The notes below the pieces were generated by a model. That model did not search any database and was not told the origin of the DNA. It saw only the letters and a program-made list of their open reading frames with translations. From NCBI GenBank assembly GCA_021234155.1, contig JAJEKV010000046.1, forward strand, positions 6,267,012 to 6,331,011: 64,000 nucleotides of DNA, written 5' to 3'. This stretch comes from Isoetes taiwanensis. Taxonomy: Eukaryota; Streptophyta; Lycopodiopsida; Isoetales; Isoetaceae. This document shows, one piece after another, positions 4,520 through 64,000 of this stretch. Every line of letters starts with the position of its first letter. Positions within the stretch are counted from its first letter, which is position 1. Position numbers and translations under genes: made by a program.

Positions 4520-6730
4520 ACATACATACTGGTTTTCCTGATAGTTTTTTATACAAGTTTATTTTTGGGGGCCTTGTGTACCCAAGTTGGGCACAACACA
4601 TCATCAGGGCGTGCCATAATAAACATACCTTTCTTCAAATCTTTGTATGGATTGAATTCTGGTACAGGTTTGTCCTTCCACGGACCGACATAAGGAGGAG
4701 TGATGCAAGCAATGGGTTCCACCACTACCACCACGTTCCTGCCTAGTGTATGGTCAAAAGTCATCGTAACTGCCTTCGTCACCAGTGATCCTCCCCAGCT
4801 CTTCCAAGAGTCTCATCCAATATTCATTTGTGGACATAAACTGTGTCGAGTACTTAGCTGTTTCCGGAGCACCCTTGTTATTGATTGAGATAGCAACCCA
4901 ATGCAATATATGCTTGTGGATACTGTTTTGCAACTGGCCAAGGTCCTTCACTGACTTTTTGGGAGGCAGTGGCTTAGGATTTCCAATTGGCATCAAGGGC
5001 TTTCTGTCGTCTCCTTATTTCCACATCTTTATTCCGCCAGCAAGCAACCACTCCAAGTAAGTGGGTCGAGCTTTGTAGTACATGACGGGCCAATTACCAT
5101 TCATAGCGAATTTGAAAGTCAGAGGGGTGGTGTGACCAGTCAATCTATCATCCCCATCTGGCGTATGCACCCTTCTATGAAACCCTTCCAGTCTGGCACT
5201 CTGTCAACAACATAGGGCACATGTGTGTTAAAGTTGCATGTGTGGAATTCATATAGCAGTTCAAGCATGGTCAGCACTCGGCCTTCCTTAAAGATGAGAA
5301 AAAGTTACCAAACAAGGTGTCGATATCCTCATGTGTATGGCCAAGCATCATGAACCCTAACTCAATCTCTTCAAACACACCAAGATATACTAGGTACGAA
5401 ATATAGGAGAAGATATACCTATTCTTGTTCTGTCCTGATGCGTTGTCCAGCTGCAAATATAGTATCCAGGGTGAGGGGCTTCAAGTCCGTGGTGCCGCGC
5501 AAGGATGACGCCCATTTTGGAGCTGATGTTTCAGGCACTGACAGATGGCCGCCAGCATAATCGTGGACCATCTCTAACCTCTTCAAGATGCTATTCAAAG
5601 AACCTACATGGAAGTTCGAGTCATCTGGTCATAGTTCCAGGGCAAAGTTCCTATAGCTTCCCTTTCCATGTTCATGAGTGAGTGCATCAGTCAATGATGC
5701 TTTCAGCTTGTCAAGCCTTCAAAGAGACTTAACAAATTGTTGCAATTTTGGAATCGTTTTTTTCGCCTGATCCATCTTGTCGTGAATAATACAAATATAT
5801 TGGGCAAGATACCTGTGGGAGTAAAATCTCCACGACCAGTACAGAGTGTGACATGAGGCCTGCTCTAGCCTATGTGCCCTTCTTTGATCATGCAATATCC
5901 TCCTCTCTGCCTCATCCTTGGTCTTCAATAACTTCGTACGGATAACCTCACACGTATCACAATTAGAGAATACAATTTTCTTTGCGATACTAACATCCCT
6001 GAAGCTCTGTCTCCATGTTCTACGAAACCCAGTCGGGGATACCTTCTTGCCGGTCAGTGCCATAACTTTTGCATTAACCTGCTCCAGAATGCTGGACTTA
6101 GTAAACATTGCAGGCAACTTCTTGATGTTCTCTCGTATCCGATCTTCATTCCCCCTACTGCAGTGGGGCAAAGATTCACAGTTCTCCCTGACAAACATGG
6201 AAAATACAGCCTTGCAGGCCAATGTCGAGGAACGAGGCTTCATCCGCAGTTGCCATGTTCGGCCTTGCGTGCACCCTCAAGGAATTGATCCTTCCACTTG
6301 ATATATGCCGACTTTGAGATCCCGAAACCAAGATATCAGGCTCTCTCACAAACGATATTCCCTTGCAGTACTAGTCGTCCGACTCTTTGACCTTTCATAT
6401 TGTTGTCTAGCATATCATAAACAAAAGTAACCCTATCACTAGATTTCATGGCAAGGAATTCCTTTCGCATGTTAACAACTTGATTCCTAGAGAACTTGGC
6501 GCAACACCTACTTTTACAGCACAGGGTCCTCCTGCAATTGAGGACTTTGAGTGATGAGACAAAGAATCTTTGGTGGCCTCAGAACCTTTCTGGGCTGTCG
6601 ATAATGAAAGGTGTAATTTTGTTTCTCATAGTTTGGGTGCTTCTGGTGCTCCGAGCTACCCTGGCTGGACACAGTATCTGCTTCCTCTTGTAGTGATGCG
6701 GTCAACATCTCCGAGACCTTCACTCCACCA
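4520..6730 (-). pseudogene. DUF7869-like 'GHTHxDID' family protein, degenerate copy 1
   Basis: Reading down the minus strand: a cysteine cluster with KFSRNQVV (about 6545-6480); a helix-turn-helix-like segment GISKSAYIKWKDQFLEGARK (about 6330-6260); an open stretch of 174 codons (6243-5719) ending near IHDKMDQ; an LTDALTHEHGKGS segment (about 5690); an open stretch (5456-5271) with QLDN, QNKNRY and GHTHEDIDTLFG; and a C-terminal segment (4996-4549). The order and motifs match a large eukaryotic family that I recall as DUF7869 proteins, common in repetitive DNA of algae, seed-free plants and invertebrates. The spaced acidic residues (HDKMD, LDN, HEDID) could form an RNase-H-like active site, but that is my inference. 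Several stops and frameshifts make it a pseudogene. A second copy lies at the right end of the window in the opposite orientation. Confidence 0.6.
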
Positions 6731-6739
6731 ACACGAACA

Positions 6740-8320
6740 AAGTCATTGTTTCACCTGACAAGCATCCCAGCCTTTGGGAGCTGCAAACATCCCTGGCAGT
6801 CGATATTCACTTCAGAAGGGGGTGGGGAACCTTTGGTAACAGAAACTCTCACGAACTTAAAACCTAAAAATTGGTCATACACTGCGTCATCAGGGCCAAT
6901 GAATGATATGAAGCCAGGGTGTCGCAAGACTGCCATATTTTACAATCCATTTCAAGAAGCATATATCTTGTCAGTGGTATATCTTGTCAAGAAGCGTATA
7001 TCTTGTCAATACACATTTATATTTACCATGTATTATTTACACCCTTTAACTATTACTTCAATGGTTAAACACTATGGTAATATCATGAAGTCACAATGCA
7101 CCATGGGGCTAGTTTATTGGATCACACTATTTATCTGTGCAGCCCTTGCCACTGAGAATAAGATACAATATTCTCAGTTTGCTTTGATAACCGTCTACAG
7201 GTGCATAAGATACAACGTTCAAAGCACATTTGAAATAAGTCAAAATGTCCCCAGGGAGAAATATTGACATTGTTAAACAATCTGTATGATAATGTGATGA
7301 CTACATTCTGAGTAGAATTTCGAGAGCTAAAATAATAGCAAAGAATGATTTCAAATATTTCTAACCTTTGATACATTGTGAGAGAATCAAGTTAATTTCT
7401 CAAACATTTTATGTTGTATGCATTTACATACTTGGTCCTATACAAAAATACATCCTTTACGTGTTACCCCTATGTAATTGATTCTAGAAGATTCGAGCAT
7501 GTGGAATTAGAAAAAGTTGATTAAAGTTGATAGGGATGTATAAAGCCTGAAATGTCATTAAAGAATCGTTGATTGAATTCTCTTTGTTTTCTGTTGCATA
7601 AGGAGAGAATTTCCAGAGCGCAACATAATTTTAAAATATGGATTGTTTGGAATGCTTGAAGTTAAATTTTAGTATGAAAACACATGAAGAGAAATCACAT
7701 TTCCAAGTTAGTTTGAGGATTTCTTGGAGGATTGCATCTTGGAACTGCCAACTGAATCTTGAACATCCAAAATGTTCTTGCATGGCCGTCGTTCTTGATA
7801 AAACATTTATCCAAAGAATTGATAATGTTTCATGCATGTCTTGTTTGTGTTCTGCAGAATACCGATATAAAGTTCTGTTTCTAAGTAACCAAGTTTCAAT
7901 CTTGATGGCCAGAAGATGGTTTTAACTCTTAGATAGTGTAATTGATGTGAGAAATGTAGATAACATTCAATCAATACAAAGCAGACATTAGGATATTCGT
8001 GAAGCAATATACTTCAGTCTGATTGCTTGTGGCGTGCTGATGTTCCTCTTTGTTATAAAATAGAATGAAGACACCTTGTCAAGTCGTTGCCCTGAGTAAA
8101 TCCAAGAAGCAGTATACATCAACCTAATTGCTTATGACGACCTCTTGAACCTCTGCTTCAGACATGTACCCTAAACATCTAAGAACATCTATCAAACTAC
8201 AATAATGTAGGGCAATTCCACGACCTTCCCTCATTAAGTTAAATACTAATAAAGCCTGCAAGGCTGCATGCAGAAACCATAAAAGTGAAAGTGACTTCCA
8301 CACCTACATATTTAAAAGGC
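6740..8320. other. intergenic, no gene recognised
   Basis: AT-rich DNA. The only structure noticed is an imperfect pair of related segments at about 8001-8033 and 8106-8138 (GAAGCAATATACTTCA-like). No domain was found in any frame. Confidence 0.45.
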
Positions 8321-8327
8321 TCTTTAT

Positions 8328-8645
8328 TCATATATCATATGCATCTTCAATTTTTCCACATATGGCATACAAAGCAATAAGAACACTAGCATCCAAATTT
8401 TTTAACGCTAGCCACATAGGCAAAAGAATTCCATTTAGATTTCTCAATATAAGCATGAACATATTTCCTAATTCAAGTGACGATAGACTTGAACATGCAG
8501 TAAAAATATTAAAAAAAATAACATCATTTGGTTCTATACCTTTCTCTTGCATTCTTGAAAGTATTCAAGAATCTCCATAGTGTGCCCATGTTGAAAACAT
8601 CCAGCAATCATGCAATTCGATGTTATAATATCATGTATTCAATGA
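8328..8645 (-). pseudogene. PLS-type pentatricopeptide-repeat (PPR) protein fragment
   Basis: On the minus strand the 5' part (about 8640-8555) reads NCMIAGCFQHGHTMEILEYF, and after a frameshift near 8555 the frame continues MQEKGIEPNDVIFFNIFTAC, SSLSSLELG and ALYAICGKIEDAYDI. These are the hallmarks of tandem PPR repeats of the P-L-S class (NAMIAGYAQHG, VTFVSILKACSS, ALIDMYAKCG). In intact genes these proteins bind organellar RNA and direct editing or processing. About three repeats are visible; there is no start, no targeting peptide and no E/DYW domain. The frameshift and missing ends indicate a gene relic. The repertoire style (KACSSLxSLELG) is typical of the large PPR families of seed-free plants. 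Confidence 0.72.
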
Positions 8646-8649
8646 AAGC

Positions 8650-9067
8650 ATCTAAGATGAGTGCATCGGGTTCATAGAAGATGTTTTTTGCATAAAAAGC
8701 AGCAGCCAGAGCTCTACTAAAGTAGAAAGTACAACACAAACTCATGTTGAATGCAACATAGTTGCAACACCTCTGGGCACGTTGGAAATGTGGTGCAAAC
8801 CAAGCTAATCCAAATGCTCTTTCTTTTTGCCTAAAATATTTAGATTAGAGATATTCAAGAAGATCTTAGGATCTTTGTACATCCAGTAAGTCCCATTATT
8901 TTGGACACCAAAGCCAGACTAATTTTATGCAATGATGAAACAATCTGGTAGAGTCAAAGAGAAAAGATCCATCATATCACAAATGGGTCTTTAATGCAAT
9001 CAATGTTGGCACTGACAAAATATTGACAAGCATTATTGGCCTATGCTGAGTCAGCACATTAAGTTTC
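8650..9067. other. intergenic, no gene recognised
   Basis: No convincing open frame or repeat between the PPR fragment and the copia LTR. Confidence 0.5.
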
Positions 9068-9274
9068 TGTTGAAGTTTTTATCTTTACAGTTAGGATTTT
9101 CTTTTGTAGCCATGTTTGGCATGTCTCAGAATAGATGAAGCTGTCGTAATTTCCTCCAAACATTAAGGAGCTCGGTTGGGAAGTATTATTCTGATCACCG
9201 AGCTCTATGTATAAAGGGAGCTCTTATTTTGAATAGAAAGCATGTTCTTCCTGTGCTAATTTTCTTAGTGTTAA
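9068..9274 (+). repeat. putative 5' LTR of a copia element
   Basis: The segment starts TGTTGAAG and runs to GTGTTAA immediately before the primer-binding site. It contains a TATA-like TATAAAG at 9210-9216 and a likely transcribed region after it. The start coordinate is a guess from the TG dinucleotide; no second LTR was found in the window to confirm either end. The length of about 207 bp is short but within the range of copia LTRs. Confidence 0.5.
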
Positions 9275-9276
9275 TA

Positions 9277-9288
9277 TGGTATCAGAGC
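9277..9288 (+). promoter_or_regulatory. Primer-binding site complementary to initiator Met-tRNA
   Basis: TGGTATCAGAGC is the classic 12-nt primer-binding site of plant copia elements, complementary to the 3' end of the initiator methionine tRNA. It lies just after the putative LTR and about 90 bp before the gag frame, which fixes the orientation of the element. Confidence 0.85.
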
Positions 9289-9361
9289 GGCTTCCAAGTG
9301 CTCTTCTTTATTGACAGCAATCTAAGAAGATGGGAAGAATTGAGAAGTTGTCTCACGCAAT

Positions 9362-10022
9362 GAATTCTACTGGTTGTCTGCCAAAGGGCTTTGGCATGTG
9401 GTGTCTGGAGATGAACCAAGACTGGTTATCTCTTCAAGGGCATTGAAAGCTCCCACTGCCGCTTGGATCGTAAAAGGTACTACTTCGACGGACAACAAGG
9501 ATGACTCAGGAGAAATGGAAGCAGACAAGCAAGCTTTGCTCAAATGGATACAGAAAGATTGGGAAGCCAAAAATCGTATGATGAGATATTTGGATGACAC
9601 TATGATAGCCCAGGTTGAAGCGGATGAGAGTGCGAAGGCTGCTTGGGAACAATTGATTTCGATTTACAAAAGGAAGCATTTTTCGCAACAAGCAAATCTT
9701 TATTCCATGATTTTCACCACAAAGCTTAAAGATTGTGCATCAGCAGAGGAATTCATATCAAAACTGCTTGGACTTCCACCATCTTTCAACAATGTCAAAA
9801 ATTTAATAGGTGCAGCTGAACATATAGAATTGAAATGGGCTTGTCAGCAAAGAAAAGAATCAGATACGTGTTGTAAAGGACAATTCGGCCCAAAGTGGAT
9901 AAGCACTTGTTGGAAGGATGGAGTATGATGACACAAGAAAGTGTTACAACTGTAATAAGATAGGGTATATTGCCAAAGACTGCACAGAACCTGATAAAAG
10001 AAAGAAGAAACAATACAATACA
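9362..10022 (+). pseudogene. Ty1/copia gag fragment with a damaged zinc knuckle
   Basis: The frame is open from about 9362 to 9928 with KGLWHVVSGDE near its N-terminus, WEQLISIYKRKHFSQQANLY in the middle and the EEFISKLLG segment. This is the layout of copia gag (UBN2/DUF4219 type), the nucleocapsid precursor that packages element RNA. After a frameshift around 9905-9930, the segment DDTRKCYNCNKIGYIAKDC follows. It is a CCHC knuckle in which the histidine is replaced by tyrosine. Protease, integrase and reverse transcriptase are absent, so only the 5' end of the element remains. The primer-binding site upstream confirms the identification. No clean ATG opens the frame, another sign of decay. 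Confidence 0.75.
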
Positions 10023-51610: not shown

Positions 51611-52580
51611 ATGCGGTTAGTCTCATGGAATGTTCAGGGGGTAGCCTCCTCCCCCCTCAAGCGGAGTCGTATTTCTTTTTACTTATCTAGATTGGATGCT
51701 CAGTTTGTATGTCTTCAAGAGCATAAGTGTCGTAAGGGAGACATATCAAAGCTTGCAGACATGATTGGTCGCAGGTTTAATGTCCTTATCGCAGCAGCTG
51801 ATTCTGCCAGTGCAGGGGTCGTGATAGCATGGCTTCCTTCCTTGCCAGTCATCTTTACTCAGCTGATCGCTTTGGTCGTTGGGCCCTAATTGTATGGCAG
51901 GAACAAAGGGTTAAATATGGTCTAATTAATGTTTATGCCCATAATAGACCTCATCAGAGAGCTTCACTGTGGGCCTCTTTGCGTGGGAAGATACTCAGCT
52001 TGGGCTGCCACATTTCATGGCTTCTTGTTGGGGATCTCAATATGGTGGAAGTGGAGTCTGATCGGTTGGGGGCGACCTCTACAGTGGTGTCTGGTTTTGA
52101 ACGCCAGCAGTGGCTTCGTCTACTCCATGACTGCAACCTCTCGGAGATTGATAGTGAAGGTGCCTTCACTTGGTGCAATGGTCAAGTTGGTGGGGGTCGT
52201 GCAAGCTTTCGGTTGGATAGTACAGTTGCGGCACTTCCAGGTCTCTTTCGATTCTGTCTCAGAGATAACTCAGTTTCAGACCACCATCTGCAATTCATTT
52301 CAGACGAGCCCCTGCAGCAGCGGCGGCCTGAAAGGACGTGTTTTCGCTTGAACGTGAAGTTCTTAAAGGATGCTGACTTTCAAGAAGGTTGCAAGAATAC
52401 TTGGACAACTTCCTTCAATCGACGTCGAGGTATGACTGGCATAGTGGATGCAATTGCGGCAGTCAAGGGTTTTGCCAAAGAGTGGGGTCGAGAGTCTGCA
52501 GCAGCAGGTCGTGCTTTACTGGACACTTTATATCAGGACCTGCTCCATTCTCGACAGGGACGTCTTCAGGTGTTCATGAT
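51611..52580 (+). pseudogene. L1-like LINE ORF2, APE-type endonuclease domain
   Basis: ORF2 opens at ATG 51611 with MRLVSWNVQGVASSPLKR, a canonical endonuclease start. Metal and catalytic motifs follow: VCLQEHKC, then (after a frameshift near 51.85-51.89 kb) GLINVYAHNRP, WLLVGDLNMVEVESDRLG, EGAFTWCNGQ and NSVSDHHLQF. This enzyme nicks target DNA to prime reverse transcription. The domain is complete apart from one frame change. A second frameshift near 52.56-52.60 kb leads into the RT frame. Confidence 0.9.
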
Positions 52581-54566
52581 CATGATATTTTGGCACAGAT
52601 CCAAGCATTGGAGGAGGAGCAAATTCAGCAAGCAAAGATGAATGCAGGTCTGCAATGGTTTCGTGATGGAGACCGTTGTACGGGCTTCTTTTTTCGTGCA
52701 GCTAAGAGGCGTCGCATGACATCAACCATGTCCTCATTGCTTTTGCCGAATGGTTCGATGCTAACAGAGCTGACTAAACTCAGGCAGCATCTGCATAACC
52801 ACTTCCAGACATTTTTTGCTGAGAAACATCTTCCCTTTCAATCAGAAATGCAAGATACTGTTTTATCTAGGATTTCCCCCATCATCTTTGGTGAGCAGCG
52901 AGAGTCAATAGAGGTGGCTATGACAGCTGACGATTTAAAATCGGCAGTCTTTGAACTGAAAAGAGGCAAATGCCCAGGTTTGGATGGTTTGCCAATTGAG
53001 TTCTTCCAGGAGTATTGGGAATGGCTGGAGCCAGATGTGTATGATGCTTTCTGTGACTTTCGGCGGTCCACTGCTTTGGATAGAATTCTAAACACAGGTG
53101 CCATCTCACTCATCCCCAAGGTCAAGGATCCTCAGACTATTTCAGATTGGCGGCCCATCACCTTATTGTCATCCATATATAAGATCTTCGCCAAGGCTTT
53201 TGCAGAGCGGGTAAAGGACATCTTGGCAGAGTCCATCTCAACAACCCAGTCAGGTTTCCTTCCAAAACAGTGCATTTTAAATAATGTTGCTGCTGCTTAC
53301 GAGGGAATTTATTGGGCACGTAGGCAAAACCTTCCAGTTGTATACCTTAAGCTTGATTTTGCAAAAGCTTATGACAGTGTCAGCTGGGAATTCATGCGTC
53401 GTTGTATGGGATTTGGGGAACAATTCACATCAGATATTATGAAGCTGCATATCTCTGCTCGGGCGACTGTCCTATTCCATGGTGAGCCGTCACATGCCTT
53501 TTCACTCGGTCGTGGTATTCGCCAGGGATGCCCTTTAGCACCATTGCTTTTCACAATTGTTGCAGAGGCTTTGTCACAGTTATTCACCATTGCGCAAGTT
53601 ATTCTCCATGGTCTTGCAATAGAGGACGGCACACACGAGGTTTGCAATCAATATGCAGACGACACGTTCCTCTTCCTAGTCGCTAATGATGAGAATCTTG
53701 CTGCTGCCAAAATGCTTTTAGATACTTTTTCACTGGCTTTCGGTGTTCTTGTGGGGTGGCAGAAGTGTACAACTTTGTGGACATTGGATAATCCGGCTCC
53801 GGCATGTGTTCACGATTATCCATGGAAATTACTTGCGCATGGACAGGCCATCAAGTTGTTGGGGATTCCAGTTGGCATCCATATTACTATGGGAGCTGCA
53901 TGGGAGGAGATCATTAGGGGTTTGGAGAAGCACTTGTTCTGGTGGTCCACTGCTAAGTTGTCACTTGCAGGTCGCATTACAGTGGCCAAGTCAGTCCTTA
54001 GTAGTATCCATGTTTATATGGCATCCTTACTGCTAGCACCACAGATTAAAGTGCGTGAGCTCATTGCAATAGTTCGGAACTTTATTTGGGCAGGTACTGA
54101 GGAAGGTGCTGTGGTTAAGGTGGCTTGGTCGAAGTGCATCCTTCCAGAATGGGCAGGTGGTCTGGGTATGATGGACTTCTTACTGCAGAGCAAAGTGCTT
54201 ATTTCAAAGTTCATTTGGAGACTCCTGAATGATGAGGATGACTCTCCTGGTTCACACCTTCTTAGACAAGCTCTTGGTCACAGTATCCCTCTAGGCAAGA
54301 AGGCTGTCAAACCAGTCCTACCTTGGGCTTTATTTCAGACTCTACAGCCTTTTCCAAGCGCTTCTCCATTTTTGCGTGGCTTGTTGACAGCATGGGAGGC
54401 AGTCAGACATCTTTTCTGGCCATGCCCCTCTCCTATTGAAGACTCCATGGTGGTGGGCACCATTGCCTCCAGACCCCTCAGCACCTCTATTTGCAGCCTC
54501 AGTTCATCCCCTTACACAGAGACGATGGGTTCTTGCAGGTGTTGTCTCTATTCAAGCATGGTATGA
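52389..54566 (+). pseudogene. L1-like LINE ORF2, reverse transcriptase domain
   Basis: The long frame (725 codons) is intact across the whole RT from about 52590. Landmarks: LQWFRDGDRCTGFFFRAAKR, KRGKCPGLDGLPIEFFQEYW, ISLIPKVKDP, DWRPITLLSSIYKIFAKAFA, LKLDFAKAYDSVSWEFM, GRGIRQGCPLAPLLFTIVAE and the catalytic YADDT at 53652-53666. The thumb-like LAGRITVAKSVLSSIHVYMA and FIWAGTEE follow. The first 60 or so codons of this frame are a shifted reading of the endonuclease and are not real. A frameshift near 54.54-54.62 kb leads to the zf-RVT frame. The domain looks young. Confidence 0.93.
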
Positions 54567-54620
54567 CCTGAATTTCAGGCAAAGTTCCTGCTCTCTCGTT
54601 GGGATGTATCTCTATGGGAG

Positions 54621-55310
54621 GTGGTCGCAGAAAATTTGCCTCTCATAGTGCAAGTTGATGTTGTTGAAAGGGTGTCATGGGACTGTCATGAAAATATTCA
54701 CAAAGGCAAGCAATTTGTCAGATCAGTATATCGCCTTCTTTTAGCAACACAACCCCTCCAGTTGCCAGATGGGTGGCACCTACATGTTCCACAGCCCACT
54801 TTGTGTCGTACATGGCGATGGCTTTGGGATGGGTTGCTCCACCCTAAAGTCTCTGTACTGTGGTGGCAGGTTATCCACAGGTGCCTGCGGGTTAATGCCT
54901 TGCGACATCGCTACGATCCGCGCATATCTGCAGTATGCCCGCTCTGCCTCTCGGATGTTGAGACTCTTGAGCATTGTCTCTTTGATTGTCTTGAGGTTCA
55001 ACCAGCGTGGTCCTGGCTACAAGGTTTGTTTAACAGTACATTGGACTGCCGATGCATCCTTTTGACGTCCTATCCCAACGCATGGCCTCCAGCTAAACAA
55101 AGGGCATTTCATCTTGGTTCCGGTTGGCTCCTATGGTCGATATGGGAGCGGCGCAGACACCACATCTTTCAGGGCATTTATTCATCTGCACACAGTGTTA
55201 TTACAGTGGCCCAGAAAAAGATATTGACAGCCTACGAGTGTTCTTCCCTTGAATCAGAACTGGTGGAACGCATCTGGATTCAGTATCTTCGAATTGATTC
55301 TTATCATTAA
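54621..55310 (+). pseudogene. L1-like LINE ORF2 C-terminus with zf-RVT zinc finger
   Basis: A frame of 229 codons reads GKQFVRSVYRLLLATQPL, WRWLWDGLLHPKVSVLWWQV, then VCPLCLSDVETLEHCLFDC. The last is the zf-RVT finger C-x2-C-x8-H-x4-C at the end of plant LINE ORF2. The frame ends at a stop at 55310, about 140 bp before the poly-A tail. It joins the RT frame by one frameshift. Confidence 0.9.
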
Positions 55311-55529
55311 TCTCATATTCTGGAGTAAGTACATTGTGCTCCAGGCTCGTGCTCCTGTGGCATCTCTGTGTGCTTACACAGTTAGATGAGACATGTAAAT
55401 TTTGTACTTTTTCTCTGATTAATAAACTTGTTGGCTTTCGTCCTTCAAAAAAAAAAAAGAAAAAAAAAAAAGAGGGTAAACATGGCTATAGAAGAAATGG
55501 AAAGGAAGAACGTGGAGAAAAAGGATATA

Positions 55530-55885
55530 GAATGGAATAGAATAGAATAGAATACATTATTGTCCCTTGTGCCCTGAGGCCACTAGACTTGTGTAGCATG
55601 GGCGAGCTCCCTGACGGGGGCTACTAGCTCATCATGCTGTTTTATTGTAGCCTTTTCTAAAGGCTCACTTTTTTTCTATTAATGCCAGCACCCTACTTTG
55701 TTCCGGCGTCTAGGCCGTGCAGGTGTGCGTCTATATCAAACAGCTTTAAACTGTACATTTGATGGGCATCTATGATTCGCTTCTTGAACGACTCATATCG
55801 TAAGCCCTTTTTGCTCGTGTGCTTCCCGGTGTCTGTTCAGCATCTCCCGTATTGCATCTACCAGATCTCTCATTGAAGCACGATT
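55530..55885 (-). mobile_element. LINE-like 3' end with (TTCTA)n tail and an unknown C-terminal coding remnant
   Basis: Read on the minus strand, coding-like sequence begins ASMRDLVDAIREMLNRHREA (about 55880-55815) and, after a frameshift, continues YESFKKRIIDAHQMYSLKLF and ends DAHLHGLDAGTK with a stop near 55700. A ~150-bp untranslated segment and a TTCTATTCTATTC tail at about 55531-55551 follow. The tail matches that of the 42.8-kb LINE, but the coding part does not resemble it. It may be another LINE or a non-autonomous passenger using the same machinery. Confidence 0.5.
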
Positions 55886-56649
55886 TAATTAATTAGAGAA
55901 TTTCGGAATTCTCGTTTAGCATGAAATAGGTTCTTGGGTGTCTATAAAACACCGCAAATGGTTGCAGCGGAGTAAAAGTTGACGTTTTTTCCGCTGCTTT
56001 TTGGGCACAAACAGCGACGTATCCGATTTGGACATGTATAAGGCTATCCCAAGCTCCTTCGGGAGCAAGAGCGGTCCACAGGAAAGAGTGAAAACACTTC
56101 GGCCAGGATCGCCCGCGAAAGATTTGAAGTCTGCCTAGGCACCGATGGATGTAATATTACAATTCCGTTAAGCTCTTCACATGGATAAAAAGAATTGAAA
56201 GTGATAATGAGGATCGCGGTGGCGAACATTGTGAGTTGTCGTGTGAAGGAATGTTTAGACAAAATAACCAAAATAGTAAACTCAAAGCATTGTAATTTGT
56301 ATTCCTCAAACATTTCAATGTACATTTCTTTGCCATATGGGCGTAAATTAGTCCATCCGGGTTTCCGATCGCCTCTCGTGTACAACACCGAAGCTCAAGA
56401 AATTATCCTAGCTACATGTTCCCGTCCCCTTTGGAAAACATCTTACGGTCCATCTCGGTAGCCTGCTTTATCCGGGATTTCTACGCACATGGCCTCAAGA
56501 AGGAGTTGGACATGTGGATCCGGCCCTTCCGCTGTCGGTATCCATGGGGTCCCTTCGACATCTCAAGCCACTCTGCTTTTCGGCACATGCGATATCGGGT
56601 GCATGGAAGAGTTTGGTTTTTTCATTGCTTGAACTCGATGCTCTTGTGT

Positions 56650-58962
56650 GCCCGATGGCTCACCCTCTTGATCTGCGGGGTCCATGCCTACGTGATTCAA
56701 ACTTCGACCCTTTGTCGAAAGGCATGTAGGCATCAAATTTTTCATTTAAAGCCCCCAATTTTTGAAACACGGGCTCTAGCGCAGAAATACCTTTCTCAGT
56801 AGCCTCCAGAAGTCTTTTCGTTTCCTGCATTCTTTCCTCGTAGCTTTTCTCATCCATTTGATCCAAGATTGAATCGATGTTAGATATATCTGTTCGTTGG
56901 GTAATGTTTAAATTGATCGCATGAGGATCATTCTCAGGCTCTGCCTTATCCTCGTCATCTGTCTCCCCAAATACTGTCCGACCATTTTTTTTCGAAGCTT
57001 ATCCGGGAAAGCCCTCGAAATCGACACTTTACCCCGGCTTTCGAAAGCAATACTCTTCTTTCCCCGGCAAAAGGCGACACGAAGCGAGACTGCTGAGAAG
57101 AAATCAAGAACACAACCATCCTTCGGCACAAGCTTGTCAACCAGGTAGTAGGCATATGATGTCTTCAATTGGCACTTCATCACGTGGTCACCTTCCATTC
57201 CGACAAACTTGTACCTGGGTTTACTTGTGAAATATGTCTGCTATTTCTTCTTCATTTTCTCATCAAGATCTTCGCCACCAGCCGGGCATTGGTGGCAAGG
57301 GCGCCTTCGGGTGCATTGCTCACTGTGTCAAACGAAGCTCCAGCCCCAGATATCTTGGCGTTCACCCCGAGTCGCTTCGTTGATGCACATATGGGTGATG
57401 TAATACCGATATTCCTTCACCCTTTTCTTGTTCACCCATCCCGCTCGTCATATGTACCTACTGAAATATGGGACCCGCCTTTGAATCTGCTTTTTGGTTG
57501 TAAAGCAATCGGCAAATTCAGACCGCATCGTAATCACAAGGTGATAAATGTTAGCGGTTGTCATCTTTGGATATTCTTGTGAAGAGTTCCATATATTTCT
57601 TGCACGCCCATAATGCGTAGAATCCTCTAAAGTCTATGAACACCATAGTAGCATTCTCGCATTAATCGGAGTGGAGGTGGGAATCCCTTCCTTTGTTACA
57701 AAGATGCACAACATTTTTTCTTCTCCTTGATCTTGATAGCCTCTTCGTGTTTCAAAATCGATCTAATGGGTTCTAGAAATGCAACGCAAATTACCCACAA
57801 CATGTTCCTTATTGTAATTGGCTTTCACGTACTCTGTATCCCCAATCGATATATCCGTAATCCATTTGTTCGAAAGCGGGAAAGTCGAAAGCAACTCCTC
57901 CCAAAAGTGTAATCTTTCCGGGCAAATGGGAAGCATATGACAAAATCTCTTTCCGCATGAAGTTTGAGGCTTCTAATATCAATGGCGCTAATACCGGGCA
58001 ATTAAACCTCGCCATGATATCCGCTTTGCACCTTAACGTATGTCTTTCCTTCCAAAATCTCATCGAAGTAGCCGAGAAGCCTCGCATTAGATATGCCTCA
58101 AGGTATCTTAACCAGGTTTTGTTGAAGAAGTCCTTCGAGGGCTTATCAGAAAATCTCCATGCTCATCACAAAGCTTCTTGTTGACCCATCCGCTGGCCAC
58201 TTCCATTAACTTTCTCAAAACCCGCCCTCCATAAAAATAAATTGCTTCTCGCCCTTTAGCTCCTTCACCTTTAACGTTGTGGTAGCTATCTCGTGGAAGT
58301 CCTACAAAACAAATGGTTAGGAAAATCGCGGCGCGATGTCTTTGAGAAAAAAGATAATAAAAAAATACCTTCCATGCCGAGGTGGTGGCGCACAATGGGA
58401 CCTTGAGGAGGACAACCATACGCTTTATGTTGATGTCAGAGTCGCTGAAGCTTCTCTAACAATGGCTCTCTCAGATACTGATGTTAGCGATGACTTCATT
58501 GCAATCAATGCTCAACTCAATATATTCTCTATCTGTCCAAGTTTCCGTTAAGCACTCTTGTTCTTCTCCTCGCGTAGGCTTTAGCAAACTCCATCTCGGC
58601 CGCTCCCGCTTCTCCAACAAGACAAAGATAGCAGTTGAGCTTGCACATATACTTGGGTTACCGATATTATCCAAAATTTCTTGCCCTTCAAGTCATCCTC
58701 GTACTCCATGTGATCTTTTTCCCGAAATAATGTGCACTTGTAAGTTAGACGTACCACAAACCGTAAATCATGAACAATAACAATCACCCCAGTAATGGGG
58801 TCGAAGGGGACAACATCGGCGGGTGTGAGCACCTCCAGGATACGCCTTGAAACTCTTCACGCGAGAGTCCGTGACGCGTGGTCGCTTGAACGCATTCGAT
58901 CGCGTGAGGTTAGCAGGAGCTGGTTCGCAATCGAATATTGAAACCTTCATAAACCAGTTCAC
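56650..58962 (-). pseudogene. N4/N6 DNA-methyltransferase-like pseudogene
   Basis: Minus-strand pieces in order: RSNAFKRPRVTDSRVKSFKA (about 58900-58840), DVVPFDPITGVIVIVHDLRF (58815-58755), AIYFYGGRVLRKLMEVASGW (about 58240-58180), KITLLGGVAFDFPAF followed by DYGYIDWGY (about 57920-57850), and YYLVDKLVPKDGCVLDFF plus SLRVAFCRGKKSIAFESR (about 57155-57035). The last segment matches the nucleotide-binding motif of N4/N6 amino-methyltransferases (VLDFFSG.G..., then a strand ending in E), and DWGY sits where the DPPY catalytic motif is expected. A charged tail (56866-56660) follows. Such enzymes methylate adenine N6 or cytosine N4. Many stops and frameshifts make it inactive, and the DPPY motif itself is altered. 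Other SAM-dependent methyltransferases are possible. Confidence 0.5.
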
Positions 58963-60551
58963 ACCAAGCGGGTAGAACCGCTTTTGAATTGTTCAAGCTT
59001 CGCGCGGTTTGTTCCGCCAATTTGGCGCTTCTTCTTGATTGAATTTGAGGTCCGTCGGCGAGCTCGTATAATAGGAAATGCTAGCCTCTTGGGCGATGCA
59101 AAGACCGGAGACTAAGGGGGTGTTGGAAGAAGAAGGTTCTCAAGGCTATCGGCGTATTGAGTTTGCCGAGTTTGATTCTCAACTTTGGGATGGTAGTATC
59201 TTTAGGCACGAGGGGGAGCACAAATAGCCGAGGGTTGAGCAGATCTATAACAGCCAGATGGTTGGGCAAAGGAAACAGCTCAATCGGAGAGGGTTTCCGG
59301 GTTCTGCAGAGGCCTCTGCTATAGATACGGCTTCACATGTTTTTTCTTCGCCGAGCCCTTTAACCAATTCGTGTCCATTACGTAAGGCATCTTCTCATCT
59401 CGTTTAGCTTTCGGGCAATGCTAGGTGGTTTCTTATCTCGCCGCAAACCTTTTCGCATGTCGAAAGCCGACAATATATCCCCTGCCTGTTATTCCGCATG
59501 AGACAGAGATTCAGAGGGACTGCATGCCAGTAGTATCCTTTCAAGACCGGTCCGAACATTCTTTCCAAAGGGTCGGCTTGTTTAATTTGCTAGCCGCCAT
59601 GAGCGAGGGATCATAGTTTGTCCATTTAAGGACATACTCAATGAACTCAAATTACAGGTGTCCTCTACGCGCATATATAATAGCGCCTTGGACATTGTTT
59701 TTGTTCCTTCCCACATAGCGATTGCAATTCCCACCTGTTGTATGTCATCGGCTTTCTTGCCCGATCCCGAGGAACAAGCAGAGGTCTTTACTTGGCCGCC
59801 TTTCGTCTGCGTGGAATTGCACCGCGGCAATTTCTATACACCACTTTCTTTCATTTGAAGGTGTGATGATCTTATTGGGTTCAACGTCCGGGCCGCTATA
59901 CAAATCCGTAGCTCGCAAGTAAGAAGTGGGTCAAGATTCCCCTAATGCACAAGTTCTTCCAGAACATCGCTAGGATCGCGGTCGCGATCTTCAAGAGAGT
60001 TAGGACGATCGCGATCGCGATCCTCATGAGTGATTCGAAGATCGCAATCAGCGGTGGTGAGTTGTCAAGAAGATCGCCACCGCCGTGTGTTGTTGACCAC
60101 TAACACGATCGCGGCCGCTATCGAAAGCAATCAGCGCCAGGATCGGGCGGGCGCCGATCCGTCCGACATCGAAAGCGTGATCGCGACCGCGATCCCGTTG
60201 AGTTCCGCACCTTCTAATGACTACATTACGAAAAAGATGAAGAGTCTAATTGAACATGCACTATGGAAAGAAATCGCTACCGCCGATCTTCTTGAGCCGA
60301 GGGGTTGGAACTAACCTTCTCTCGAGGTGGGCTTTGGTGCCATGGATCGCCGCGCTACGGAAGCTTTGACGGGTTGATTCTAACCGTGGTGGAAGGCGCG
60401 GAGGAGGCGAAGGCACGGGAATCGCGGAAGGCCGGAAATCGGGCGGGTGGAATGAAAGTCCAAGGGATCGCGAGAATAAATATCGAAGCCTGGGGAAGCC
60501 GGATTAATTTAATCCGCACGTCGCGGACCCTCGACACGCCATAAATTGCAG

Positions 60552-60611
60552 CCATTAATACGGCCGGCATTCATAAATACCCACCATTAATGCAGCCGCC
60601 CGTATTAATGG
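60552..60611. repeat. Perfect 12-bp inverted repeat with 36-bp loop
   Basis: CCATTAATACGG at 60552-60563 pairs with CCGTATTAATGG at 60600-60611. A related CCATTAATGCAG lies between. Such a hairpin can mark a mobile-element end or a terminator-like structure; there is no further support. Confidence 0.6.
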
Positions 60612-60623
60612 ACACACAAATTC

Positions 60624-60684
60624 AAATTCAAAAAGTGTACATAATAAAGTGCACCTCCAAATTCAAAAAGTGTACGTAATAAAG
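60624..60684. repeat. 35-bp tandem duplication
   Basis: AAATTCAAAAAGTGTAC(A/G)TA at 60624 and 60659. Confidence 0.85.
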
Positions 60685-62529
60685 GCCCTACGGAACCATA
60701 ATTAAGACGCCTCTGGAGCGCGGTTGAAGGCCTGAAAGAGGCAACTGATTTCAAATTTTAAACCTGAATTTCACGCTCGATGAAGAGGGCGGGATTTCCA
60801 GTTTGTAATCGAGCAGGGTGTTCTGGAAGGCGCTCGTTCTTCGTCGGCCCTTCGTTGGGTTTTGGAGCGCTCGATCTGCTCATCAGGGCTATAGTGCTCA
60901 TCTTGAAGGCGCTCGCCTACTCTAAGCTACAGGGGTACAAAATCCTAATGCCTTACTATCTATCCAGCTAGAAGTTGTCGAATTCAGGAGAGATTTTCGA
61001 TTTGTTGTTTATGTATAGGTTATAATAGTGCCCTCACAACCATAACAACATATGCACCATCTCTTTCTTGGTATATGCTGTTCAGGGATCTGTATAATCT
61101 GATTAGCGAGGCCCAATTGAATTGTTTATTTCTCGGACTAATTGATAGTGAGGGAATATCACGGTAACATAATGGTTCTGCTAATGGTAGTGCTAATGGT
61201 TTTGCTCCCAAATGCTCAATTCACTCTATGGATCTCCATTTTAATTAACCGACAGGCAATTTTCGTTTGTGGAAATAACAACCGCAATTAATATTCACAT
61301 AGACATTTGATTTAAGTAGACTTACTCAAGCATCTATTTTTGCTCGATTCGACTTTGCTTCGGATGTCCGCATGAAAGAATCGCGACTAGCGTTCATCCC
61401 GAGCATAGCGCTTACATAGCGACGCGAGATTACTTGAATTAATCGCGATTGCGATCTTTTCGAGGTAAGTCTAGTGGATAGGTGGTTTTAAATGGTTAGT
61501 TAGATTAGACAAAGTTTCTAGGTAGATCCTGAAGGATTGAAGGTCCACCATAGAGGTCGGATGGATCGCCGCGCATCTCCCTACCGTCCGTGTCTTGTGC
61601 TTCATCATTTATACCCATGTGTTCAAGAGAATCGCCTTCACGATCTTCCCCGAGGTATTATGTCGCCCCTTTGGGTCTTTGAGTAATCGCATTTTTTCTT
61701 CTAATGAGGTCCAACATATCGCCATCGCGATGTTGACGAAGCAAGGTTGACTTTATTCGTGATGGAAGCTCTACGCCTTTCTACCCGTTGGGGAAGAAGG
61801 TGGTCGAGGGCGAGTGCATAACTTCAAAAATCACCACAACGCCCCGCGCCGCATTTAATTGATAGTAGTTTCTCTAGTCGTTGTCTTTGATGGGCGATAC
61901 CACCGCCGCTTCCGTAAGGAATTGAACCACCTAGAGGAGGCCGCTTGGTAGCTTCATTCTTTGGTCCAAAAAGCGGCGCTCATGATGAAATCACTCCAAA
62001 GACCCGATGTTAACACACCACCGGGTCGGATCAAACGGATAAATTGGCAAGTTCCAAAGAACTCCCCGTGGAAGGAAACAATGAACCAATTGAATTGCGT
62101 GGGGATTTGCGGGGATAAACTAGTGGAAAAGACATGTGAGTTAACGCGACGAGTGCTTTGCAAACCGGCTTATGCTACTGGTGTCATCGTTTTGCAGATC
62201 CAAACGATGCCGTGATCCGACATGAAGTTGGGTGAAGCATGGATAGGGTTTCGTTATGAATTTGTTGCCAATGCCCGAGAAGATTTCTATGCTCACGCTT
62301 GTGCGTAAATGCCACGATGCATGACTTGGTGAGATGGCCAATAGCATTGGTTCTCGCGACAAGATTCCGCTTCTAGCCTAGTTACGGCCATGAAGGAGAC
62401 CGAGGTTGAGAAGGAAGCTTACGCCATCAGGCCGGAGGCTGAGTAACAAAAAAGACAAGACCACATGGTGAATGTGAAGGCGAGAGGACGCCGACCCCAA
62501 AAAAAAGGTGAAAGGAAAACCACACCGAA

Positions 62530-64000
62530 GCTATCTTGCGCTTGTCCTCGATGTGTCGCTTGAAGAGATGTTGTGCTAATTTCACGCTTAAGGAGGTATC
62601 CGCCATGAGGACCTTCTAATCGAACATGAAAAGCTCAACGCACGACTTTTGCGTACAACATGCTAGATCTTTGTTCGCACAATGGATGTGTGAAAAAGCT
62701 AATCTTTGAACAACAGGGAAGTCTCCGCGGTGAAGGCATGGCATAGTGCATACCAGATCCCGCTTCTACATTTTACAAATGGAGGAAGCTTTTATGGAAG
62801 GGCACAGATTGCGGAGATGGAAACTCCCGTCCATGAAGCCAAGGTCTCATACACCGCCTGGAGGTGCCGTGGCTATCTATGTACATAGATGAAAATGCTG
62901 AAACTATGCCACACCGCCAAAGGTTACGAGTGGGGAACTAGAGAAAATGTGAAGAGATTACCTTCCATCTTGACTAAAAAGGACATACATCAAGAGGTAG
63001 ATATAACCGCCCACGAGATGACAAAAAAACATGTTTCTCAATCGTCCTTCTTGTCAACATGGAAGGAGAACCACTCTGAGGTAGCAATCGCCAAAAGGAT
63101 AGCATTTTCTAAGTGTAATACCTGTATTGTGATAAAGGAGAAACTTGCCAAGACTAGGGATCCGAGAGAAAGAAGAGAGCTCGCCGTGGAAAGGAAATCT
63201 CACATGACATTCCAACTTTCCTCAAGTAGAGTCTCTACCGGTCGTGGAGAGCTTTGTCTCATCGATCTCCCCGAAAATGCCTTAACCATTATACATGATA
63301 AGATGGATCAGAATAAGACGATGGTTCCTCGTCTGGAGAAGCTAGCAAAATCTGTATGGAGGGGTGAACGGTTGAAGGTGAGTCTTACTGGTGCTCTCAT
63401 GCATGGGCATGGTGTAGGTGCTTTGGGCCACTTCTCATTTGGACCTCTTCGGCCGATGATTCGAATTTTCATGTGGGATCTTTAAATCATACCTTGAAAA
63501 CACTAGAGAATCAATCGAGGACAACCGGGGTCATTTGAGAAATACGATCATCAAGGAAGTCTTTGGGGGTGGAGCAATCATGAACACGGAAGCCCTTAGG
63601 ACAAAATGGTGAATGGCACTAGAAACGATTTTATGCCTCCTATCAAGGGCCCTCGATAATCAAGAAGTTGCCTAGGAGGCTTTACTTGCAGCCTAGACAA
63701 TTGCTCGACAAAACAAGAACATGTATCTTTTCTCTTACTTGTCATACTTGGTCCGGTTAGGTGTCTTCGATCAAAAGTGCAACTGATTCATGATGGTTGG
63801 ACACACCCACGATGACATAGATGCCCTCTTTGGAAACTACTCTACTCTATTGAGAAGATCGATGCATTGACTATTCCTGAGCTTATGCAACTCTTCGTGC
63901 AAGTGTAGTTCAAAGTCTCCTACGCCCTACCTTGTGTCTGAGGTTCCCAACTGGAAAGAATTCGTGAAAGGTTTTATCCCTGATAAGAAGGACCGTTTAT
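62530..64000 (+). pseudogene. DUF7869-like 'GHTHxDID' family protein, degenerate copy 2, runs off the window
   Basis: On the + strand: RLKRCCANFTLKEVSAMR (near 62560), TTFAYNMLD (near 62650), a FYKWRKLLWKG segment (near 62780), then an open frame of 198 codons (62889-63485) with RENVKRLPSILTKKDIHQEV, KRIAFSKCNTCIVIKEKLAK, IIHDKMDQNK (63289-63318) and LTGALMHGHGVGALGHFSFG. In other frames MYLFSYLSYLVRLGVFDQK and MMVGHTHDDIDALFGN (63790-63837) follow, and VPNWKEFVKGFIPDKKDR reaches the last base. All segments align in order with copy 1 at 4.5-6.7 kb on the other strand. Frameshifts at about 63480, 63690 and 63780 break it. The C-terminal part lies beyond the window. Confidence 0.6.

What the first reader, a model, noticed from the sequence alone, without database searches (positions are those of the whole stretch)
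56650..58962. Eukaryotic N4/N6 DNA-methyltransferase-like pseudogene in a plant TE block
The minus strand carries YYLVDKLVPKDGCVLDFF and, after SLRVAFCRGK, KKSIAFESR, matching the SAM-binding motif of bacterial-type amino-methyltransferases, with a degenerate DPPY-like DWGY upstream. Such enzymes are rare in plant genomes outside mobile elements. If the family has intact copies elsewhere, it would be a candidate writer of 6mA or 4mC carried by a transposon. The reading here is from broken frames, so this is a hypothesis.
Basis: partly seen in the sequence, partly recalled or inferred. Interest (0 to 1): 0.78.

Follow-up and report, generated by a model that had tools for sequence, protein, structure and literature searches.

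The report
Transposon gene with dead DNA-methyltransferase domain
The stretch is a broken copy of a gene carried by a very abundant jumping gene, probably in an aquatic lycophyte; the gene descends from a bacterial-type DNA-methylating enzyme but lacks its catalytic motif, and each branch of the family carries its own repeated mirror-image DNA sites, as if each protein recognises its own element.

Summary
The minus-strand peptides are real. They belong to exon 3 of the second gene of a 10.17-kb DNA transposon (window 55876 to 2,049 bp past the window edge; inverted termini; 4-bp target duplication ATTG). Its first gene is a divergent DUF7869 transposase; the second joins a ParB-like part (GNHS) to a methyltransferase-like part. 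The genome search listed 150 matches, this one included, many in open frames of 300-670 aa. The window family does not pass PF01555 and has D[I/V/F]R[G/A] where motif IV belongs, so it is probably not a writer.

Ancestry is supported indirectly. A sister transposon family (M) in the same genome keeps DLPY and FSGSGTT, passes PF01555, and aligns from motif IV to motif I with the window family plus a third family, D (E 2.9e-6; reversed controls 0.75-0.81).

Each family carries its own palindromes in similar non-coding places: GATCGCGNNCGCGATC (838 genomic sites, control 1), GTGTATTCCGGAATACAC (2585, control 0), CRCGCCNGGCGYG. Best reading: a self-recognising DNA-binding accessory protein, like VANC of VANDAL transposons. 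ParB-methyltransferase transposon genes are published for algae; the lycophyte host, non-catalytic lineages and matching palindromes appear new. Function is inferred.

The parts
55872..55875 (.). 4-bp target-site duplication ATTG; second copy directly beyond the other terminus outside the window (L023 2050-2053)
   Evidence: CTCTC-ATTG-AAGCACG... and ...CGTGCTT-ATTG-TTTCTG
55876..64000 (-). 10,174-bp DNA transposon, of which this is the part inside the window; other terminus at L023 2049 = C1052:6333060
   Evidence: shared sharp boundaries with copies on C1105 and C908, termini and TSDs
55876..55900 (-). terminal inverted repeat (AAGCACGATTTAATTAATTAGAGAA; other end AAGCACGATTTCATTAATTGGAGAA)
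56348..58301 (-). exon 3 of gene 2: methyltransferase-like part, frame broken (58 frame-disrupting gaps, 3 stops against L017)
57034..57120 (-). motif I region (DGCVLDFFSAVSLRVAFCRGKKSIAFESR); family form is FSAGTAS where family M has FSGSGTT
57623..57655 (-). position of motif IV: NATMVFIDFRG (D kept, PPY/LPY absent)
   Evidence: read
58302..58368 (-). 67-nt intron (GTATTT...TTTGTAG) before exon 3, inferred by eye from donor, acceptor and frame; holds a palindrome remnant
   Evidence: sequence; no transcript data
58325..58337 (.). shortened palindrome ATCGCG-G-CGCGAT inside the intron
   Evidence: element 7716; copies such as L017 and L019 have a 14-bp form shortly before exon 3
58369..58744 (-). 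exon 2: ParB-like part (GNHS in copy L017; frame-shifted here), approximate ends
   Evidence: hhalign of L017's ParB-like exons to family D's GQHS exon, E=1.6e-13
58788..59940 (-). exon 1: N-terminal part with the start of the ParB-like part, approximate ends
59975..59988 (.). palindrome ATCGCGGTCGCGAT
60008..60021 (.). palindrome ATCGCGATCGCGAT
60108..60121 (.). palindrome, 1 mismatch
60180..60193 (.). palindrome ATCGCGACCGCGAT
61442..61455 (.). palindrome, 1 mismatch
61718..61731 (.). palindrome, 1 mismatch
62889..64000 (+). gene 1: DUF7869 transposase, divergent from gene 2, broken here; an exon homologous to that of copy C1105 runs from 63507 to about 64862 (continues outside the window)
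   Evidence: 96.7% identity, 25 frame-disrupting gaps; PF25273 E=3.6e-37 in that exon of copy C1105; the broken window exon itself was not scanned

Best explanation
Shown by sequence: the stretch is exon 3 of the second gene of a DUF7869 DNA transposon with inverted termini and 4-bp target duplications. That gene joins a ParB-like part to a methyltransferase-like part that lacks the catalytic motif throughout the copies read. The element carries several copies of one long palindrome, most of them around the starts of its two divergent genes, with others in the intron before exon 3 or near the 3' end in some copies. Inferred: the ParB-like part binds its own lineage's palindromes, the protein assembles along the array, and this marks or shields the element so that its genes escape host silencing. 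In the sister family M the enzyme also methylates the bound DNA, most likely at N6-adenine. In the window lineage the methyltransferase fold is kept as a scaffold or cofactor-sensing part without catalysis. In working logic this resembles VANC proteins of VANDAL transposons; in parts it resembles bacterial ParB on parS sites.
For: Element anatomy: 3 of 3 W copies read to both ends share termini and have 4-bp duplications (ATTG, TAAG, AATT), with DUF7869 in the divergent gene of copy C1105 (E=3.6e-37) and a homologous exon in the window copy. Homology: W plus D against M, hhalign E=2.9e-6 over 215 columns from motif IV to beyond motif I; reversed profiles E=0.75 and 0.81. W against D over 390 columns E=1.4e-7; their ParB-like exons E=1.6e-13. 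Selection: dN/dS 0.13-0.33 in the 7 of 15 W pairs with unsaturated dS. Palindromes: 838 exact W-type sites genome-wide, backward control 1, a palindrome of the same composition 1; M type 2585 against 0; two D types 10 and 637 against 0. Specificity: W type in 7 of 11 W loci and 0 of 11 M loci, M type in 9 of 11 M loci and 0 of 11 W loci (some loci overlap, distinct places 7 of 10 and 6 of 7); D type in 15 of 16 stretches 5' of D exons, W and M types in 0 of 16. 7 of 10 exact D1 sites lie within 0.8 kb 5' of a D exon. Preferred spacings: 20 of 24 M spacings 41-43 bp, 30 of 78 D spacings 32 bp.
Against: No binding, methylation or expression data. W alone against M is only E=0.0033 and D alone against M E=0.088. 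ParB identity of W is by chain only: no library hit for its exons, E=0.022 to the M ParB exon, D to M 0.015, and M itself reaches TIGR03764 only at E=2.8e-4, far below its cut-off. Copies within a family share palindromes by descent; only the contrast between a handful of lineages is informative. 4 of 11 W loci (L006, L007, L008, L020; the last two one place) and 2 of 11 M loci (one place) lack their type. The D core pattern was generalised after an unguided scan of the same 16 stretches, which found 12 palindromes against 4.05 expected. 14 of 55 exact D core sites are asymmetric at the A/G position. Spacings show no peak at a 10.5-bp period over neighbouring periods. Among D pairs the only unsaturated one has dN/dS 0.91 at dS 0.02, and the copies compared were picked for open frames. 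Listed W places are not near listed DUF7869 places more than chance (1 pair, 0.41 expected), though the list stops at 166.8 bits and the W-type exon scores 128.3.
Confidence: 0.55

Rival explanations
1. The methyltransferase-like protein is a non-catalytic partner of the intact enzyme (as METTL14 is to METTL3, recalled): W and D proteins act in trans with the M enzyme of other elements.
For: W, D and M coexist in one genome; on C976 a D gene and an M gene lie about 5 kb apart.
Against: Each family has its own palindrome. Of the listed places (150 W, 66 D, 150 M) no W-M pair and only that one D-M pair lie within 15 kb; the lists are capped.
Confidence: 0.12
2. The palindromes are transposition sites: the second protein helps the transposase pair the ends, as TnpA does in CACTA elements (recalled), and methyltransferase ancestry is incidental.
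For: Multiple inverted repeats and a DNA-binding accessory protein fit this; L019 has two sites within 400 bp of its 3' end.
Against: In the window element and in copies A, B, X and Y the sites lie about 1.9 kb or more from the termini, mostly around the gene starts or in the intron.
Confidence: 0.15
3. The gene is a useless remnant: a captured bacterial methyltransferase gene that decays while the transposase moves the element.
For: Catalytic motif absent; the window copy is badly broken; many other matches hold stops.
Against: dN/dS 0.13-0.33 in 7 of 15 W pairs and 63 substitutions with no gap over exon 3 between copies L017 and L018, with the caution that these were picked for open frames; the altered motif is itself conserved (15 of 15 W, 7 of 7 D).
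Confidence: 0.08
4. A separate point on the window copy: its broken frames are partly residual long-read errors of a repeat-rich assembly, not a pseudogene.
For: Exon 3 has 66 gaps against 110 mismatches, 49 of the 66 gaps 1 bp long. Private changes show little CpG-transition excess: 26 of 558 CpG sites with 642 private substitutions, against 32 of 523 with 260 in copy A and 21 of 497 with 314 in copy B. The published assembly used Nanopore with Illumina reads.
Against: Over the whole element the gap/substitution ratio (0.26) is close to those of copies A and B (0.17, 0.23); an unbroken 729-aa frame lies nearby.
Confidence: 0.3

Closest known systems
Sola1-1_Ec32 of Ectocarpus, ParB + N4/N6 methyltransferase accessory gene (PMC12477816, passages seen)
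   Same: DNA transposon; gene on the strand opposite the transposase; ParB-like plus N4/N6 methyltransferase domains; the authors suggest binding and modifying their own transposon
   Different: There 21.5 kb, a brown alga, domain predicted to produce 4mC or 6mA; the word palindrome does not occur in its main text. Here probably a lycophyte, 10.2 kb, catalytic motif absent, family-specific palindromes
VANC anti-silencing proteins of Arabidopsis VANDAL transposons (PMC5735166, PMC10398659; abstracts and outlines seen)
   Same: Transposon-encoded protein, lineage-specific repeated target motifs in non-coding regions, targets differing between relatives
   Different: VANDAL is a Mutator-type element (recalled) and the abstracts do not call VANC a ParB or methyltransferase; here binding and anti-silencing are untested
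Beta-class N6-adenine methyltransferases CcrM, RsrI, MboIIA
   Same: Family M matches their chains (E 2.4e-8, 1.3e-7, 9.7e-10); order motif IV then motif I
   Different: The W+D profile has no significant match (RsrI at E=0.58) and the window family lacks the catalytic motif
Bacterial ParB/parS
   Same: ParB-like part with GNHS/GQHS and palindromic site arrays
   Different: No significant ParB profile match in the window family; eukaryotic transposon

Membership tests
N6_N4_Mtase (PF01555) | score over the curated cut-off of 26.7 bits | tested here: not met
   10 window pieces, no PF01555 match; best of 9 relatives 14.4 bits, E=0.038
N6_N4_Mtase (PF01555) | catalytic motif IV (D/N/S)PP(Y/F/W) (recalled) | tested here: not met
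   D[IVF]R[GA] in 14 of 15 W copies by pattern, the 15th read by eye as DIRG
N6_N4_Mtase (PF01555) | SAM-binding motif I FxGxG (recalled) | tested here: inconclusive
   FSAGTAS or one change from it in 15 of 15 W copies, aligned with a one-residue gap to FSGSGTT of family M
N6_N4_Mtase (PF01555) | common ancestry with the fold, motif IV before motif I | tested here: met
   W+D profile against M, E=2.9e-6, colinear; reversed controls 0.75-0.81; W alone E=0.0033, D alone 0.088
DUF7869 cut-and-paste DNA transposon | DUF7869 transposase gene | tested here: met
   copy C1105 E=3.6e-37; window exon 96.7% identical over 1343 aligned bases
DUF7869 cut-and-paste DNA transposon | inverted termini and fixed-length target duplication | tested here: met
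   4-bp duplications in 3 of 3 W copies and 2 of 2 M copies read to both ends; not determined for D
Sola superfamily | Sola-type transposase | not testable with these tools
   no Repbase; the 4-bp duplication fits what I recall of Sola
ParB | significant match to a ParB profile | tested here: inconclusive
   none for W; M exon TIGR03764 E=2.8e-4, below cut-off; W-D exons homologous E=1.6e-13, with GNHS and GQHS
VANC-like anti-silencing (working analogy) | lineage-specific repeated motifs in non-coding parts | tested here: met
VANC-like anti-silencing (working analogy) | binding to the motifs and loss of silencing marks | not testable with these tools
   needs protein and methylome data

The most novel reading that the evidence does not exclude
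A bacterial-type ParB-methyltransferase taken up by DUF7869 transposons became a diversifying self-recognition system in a land plant: each lineage pairs its protein with a private palindrome code near its gene starts and in the intron after the ParB exon, and at least two lineages gave up catalysis and work by binding alone to protect their own element.
Probability: 0.42. Interest if true: 0.85.

Novelty: new variant of a known kind. Interest (0 to 1): 0.72.

Why it matters
Published work proposes that algal transposon ParB-methyltransferases bind and modify their own element, but in the passages I could read it names no target. Here candidate targets are visible: four palindrome types in three protein families (two of them subtypes within D) in one genome. 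That makes the idea directly testable. If right, it is a further case beside VANC of sequence-specific transposon self-protection in plants, with a set of natural protein-motif pairs, and it separates recognition (kept) from methylation (lost in some lineages).

Tried and rejected
Direct Pfam, NCBIfam and PHROGs searches of the window family gave nothing significant. PF01555 used on the genome found mostly another family, which first looked like a refutation and then became the bridge. The idea that D and M genes share one element (C976) was dropped: their palindromes differ and no second D-M pair lies within 15 kb among the 66 D and 150 M listed places. The D family's own transposase was not established: of two copies read upstream, L049 has a divergent frame (5319-5888) that by eye resembles the transposase N-terminus, L048 shows none over 130 aa with the motifs searched; D termini were not found. 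The idea that the window copy is clearly sequencing error was not settled. A 10.5-bp phase of the sites is not supported over other periods in any family. The green-algal paper PMC12633428 (passages seen) does not mention methyltransferases or ParB. Phage relatives of the M enzyme are distant (120 records, best listed at 28% identity, E about 6e-6).

Searches behind 'appears new': paper searches, and term searches in PMC12477816, in a library without most subscription journals. Iyer 2011 and Petroll 2025, which the Ectocarpus paper cites for algal cases, were seen only as reference-list entries, so their content is not checked. One search served the VANC comparison, another the host.

Full report
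Where it is. The window is C1052:6267012-6331011 of a genome of 1,658,258,908 bases in 1110 contigs. The published Isoetes taiwanensis assembly has 1658.30 Mb in 204 scaffolds and 909 unplaced contigs (PMC8566536, passages), so the host is very probably that lycophyte; this is an inference from size and contig number.

The observation. The quoted peptides are in the minus-strand frame 56908-57240. Searching the genome with that frame gave 150 scored matches, the window itself included, the weakest at E=4.1e-27, from 1947 candidates, many in open frames of 300-670 aa and many with stops. The DWGY peptide is in the frame 57809-58162, not the family's frame over those bases, which reads ITDISIGDTEYVKANYN; the position that aligns with motif IV is NATMVFIDFRG at 57623-57655. 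The window exon 3 (56348-58301) is 94% identical to that of copy L017 but has 58 frame-disrupting gaps and 3 in-frame stops.

The element. Comparing the window with copies on C1105 (A) and C908 (B) gave sharp common ends. The termini are inverted repeats starting AAGCACGATTT, and the 4-bp duplications are ATTG (window copy, plus strand), TAAG and AATT. The window element is 10,174 bp, from 55876 to 2,049 bp beyond the window. It has two divergent genes. In copy A one carries DUF7869 (E=3.6e-37), with QLDNCSGQNKN and GHTHDDID, which I take for transposase motifs (recalled). The other has exons with a ParB-like GNHS part and a 657-aa methyltransferase-like exon. DUF7869 is very abundant here (150 scored of 9907 candidates).

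Is it a methyltransferase? PF01555 matches none of the 10 window pieces, and of 9 longer W and D relatives one reaches E=0.038. A search of the genome with PF01555 found another family, M, at up to 72.6 bits, whose exon gives E=5.7e-19 and whose profile matches MboIIA, CcrM and RsrI chains. M genes lie in the same kind of element: 24 pairs of M and DUF7869 places within 15 kb among the 150 and 150 listed, 0.41 expected, 22 of them divergent. The same count for W gives 1 pair, not divergent, 0.41 expected, and for D 1 pair, on C976 where an M gene lies between, 0.18 expected. The DUF7869 list holds only matches of 166.8 bits or more, and the W-type exon scores 128.3, so W depends on the copies read. 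Two M elements read to both ends (X, Y) have inverted termini beginning AACA with TTGC and ATTAAACGGGAG inside, and 4-bp duplications CTTA and ATAC, with DUF7869 at E=5e-52 and 8.4e-50. A third family, D, was found near an M gene on C976 and has 74 matches from 66 scored of 6520 candidates; its transposase and termini were not established.

Homology between families. W against D: E=1.4e-7 over 390 columns. W alone against M: E=0.0033 over motif I. D alone against M: E=0.088. W plus D against M: E=2.9e-6 over 215 columns from motif IV to beyond motif I (all; smaller sets gave 1.8e-5, 0.0025 and 0.19 for the first three). With either profile reversed E is 0.75-0.81. In that alignment the D of FID meets the D of ADLPYG and LPYGFKLKD falls in a gap. 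ParB-like exons: W against D E=1.6e-13, W against M 0.022, D against M 0.015. The M ParB exon reaches the ParB family TIGR03764 at E=2.8e-4, below its cut-off, PHROG 30771 of unknown function at 3.2e-4 and ParB-like PHROG 1033 at 0.014; all weak.

Catalysis. A census of motif IV: M, DLPY or DIPY in 11 of 13 loci, one IADIPLRL, one not readable by the pattern; W, D[IVF]R[GA] in 14 of 15, the 15th (L036) read by eye as DIRG; D, DSR in 7 of 7. Motif I is FSGSGTT in 13 of 13 M loci, FSAGTAS or one change from it in 15 of 15 W, HVGGY in 7 of 7 D. Four M places are listed twice, as short and long stretches. Loss of catalysis in W and D is inferred from sequence. W copies look constrained: dN/dS 0.13-0.33 for the 7 of 15 pairs whose synonymous distance is not saturated; M pairs 0.05-0.06 for 2 of 3; the only unsaturated D pair of 6 has 0.91 at dS 0.02. 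Copies L017 and L018 differ by 63 substitutions and no gap over exon 3. These copies were picked for open frames, which favours such a result.

Palindromes. The window has 6 sites of ATCGCGNNCGCGAT with up to 1 mismatch, all in the element, 0.03 expected for the whole window, and a shortened one in the intron before exon 3. Genome-wide GATCGCGNNCGCGATC occurs 838 times and its backward control once; a palindrome of the same composition occurs once, and the backward form of that one 24 times. M elements carry GTGTATTCCGGAATACAC instead (2585 genome-wide, control 0), clustered in the intron between ParB and methyltransferase exons and between the two genes. D elements carry CRCGCCNGGCGYG, with subtypes AAGCACGCCNGGCGTGCTT (10, control 0) and AATCGCGCCNGGCGCGATT (637, control 0), in the intron after the ParB exon. 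Cross table: W loci have the W type in 7 of 11 and the M type in 0 of 11; M loci have the M type in 9 of 11 and the W type in 0 of 11 (overlapping loci reduce this to 7 of 10 and 6 of 7 distinct places). Of 16 stretches 5' of D exons, 15 have the D core with up to 1 mismatch (expected at most 0.03 each) and 0 have W or M types. That core was generalised after an unguided scan of the same stretches, which found 12 palindromes of any kind against 4.05 expected. Against: L024, an M locus, has 3 D-type sites near its end, 14 of 55 exact D core sites are asymmetric, the M gene of L026 has no M-type site, and site spacing has no special 10.5-bp period.

Mechanism. What is shown: a divergent two-gene transposon, a ParB-like plus methyltransferase-like accessory protein, conserved absence of the catalytic motif in two families, and lineage-specific palindromes in similar non-coding places. 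What is inferred: the protein binds its own palindromes and so keeps its element out of host silencing, with methylation in family M and without it in W and D. The nearest worked-out precedent is VANC of VANDAL elements, whose targets often form tandem repeats that vary considerably between related elements (PMC5735166, PMC10398659; abstracts and outlines).

What is known. The Ectocarpus study (PMC12477816; [quoted passage not shown] So the kind is known. In the searches named in Tried and rejected I found no report from a land plant, of non-catalytic lineages, or of palindromic targets; two cited sources could not be read.

Verdict. The stretch is not a writer candidate. It is a broken copy of a catalytically altered member of a known kind of transposon accessory gene, in a host and with a target pattern that appear new. 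The pseudogene status of this one copy is uncertain: gaps and the weak CpG signal leave assembly error open.

Noticed in passing
window 52377-55310, + strand: Unbroken 729-aa frame that reads by eye as a LINE reverse transcriptase, followed by a 247-aa frame and an A-rich tail near 55447-55471; it ends about 400 bp before the transposon.
   Followed up: no
L026 (C976:444001-454000): A D-family gene (627-2657, +) and an M-family gene (7390-10000, -) about 5 kb apart; ten D-type palindromes lie at 389-676, around the intron 5' of the D exon, several at 31-32 bp spacing.
   Followed up: partly
G000, PF25273: DUF7869 is extremely abundant: 150 scored of 9907 first-look candidates; no paper in the library holds the word DUF7869.
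   Followed up: partly
L010 (C1034:14626101-14629664): A PF01555 match (E=9.2e-17) in a context with frames unlike the M family's neighbours; perhaps another N4/N6 methyltransferase setting.
   Followed up: no
window element TIR and D1 palindrome: The window element's termini start AAGCACG and the D1 palindrome half-site is AAGCACGCC; may be chance.
   Followed up: no
L024 8166-9800: Three D-type palindromes (9551-9800) lie 5' of minus-strand frames resembling the transposase N-terminus (8166-8672), perhaps a neighbouring D element beside the M gene.
   Followed up: partly
L044 3704-5647 and L045 (X): Frames that read by eye as Ty3-type retrotransposon protein flank the M element X, so it sits in nested repeats.
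   Followed up: no
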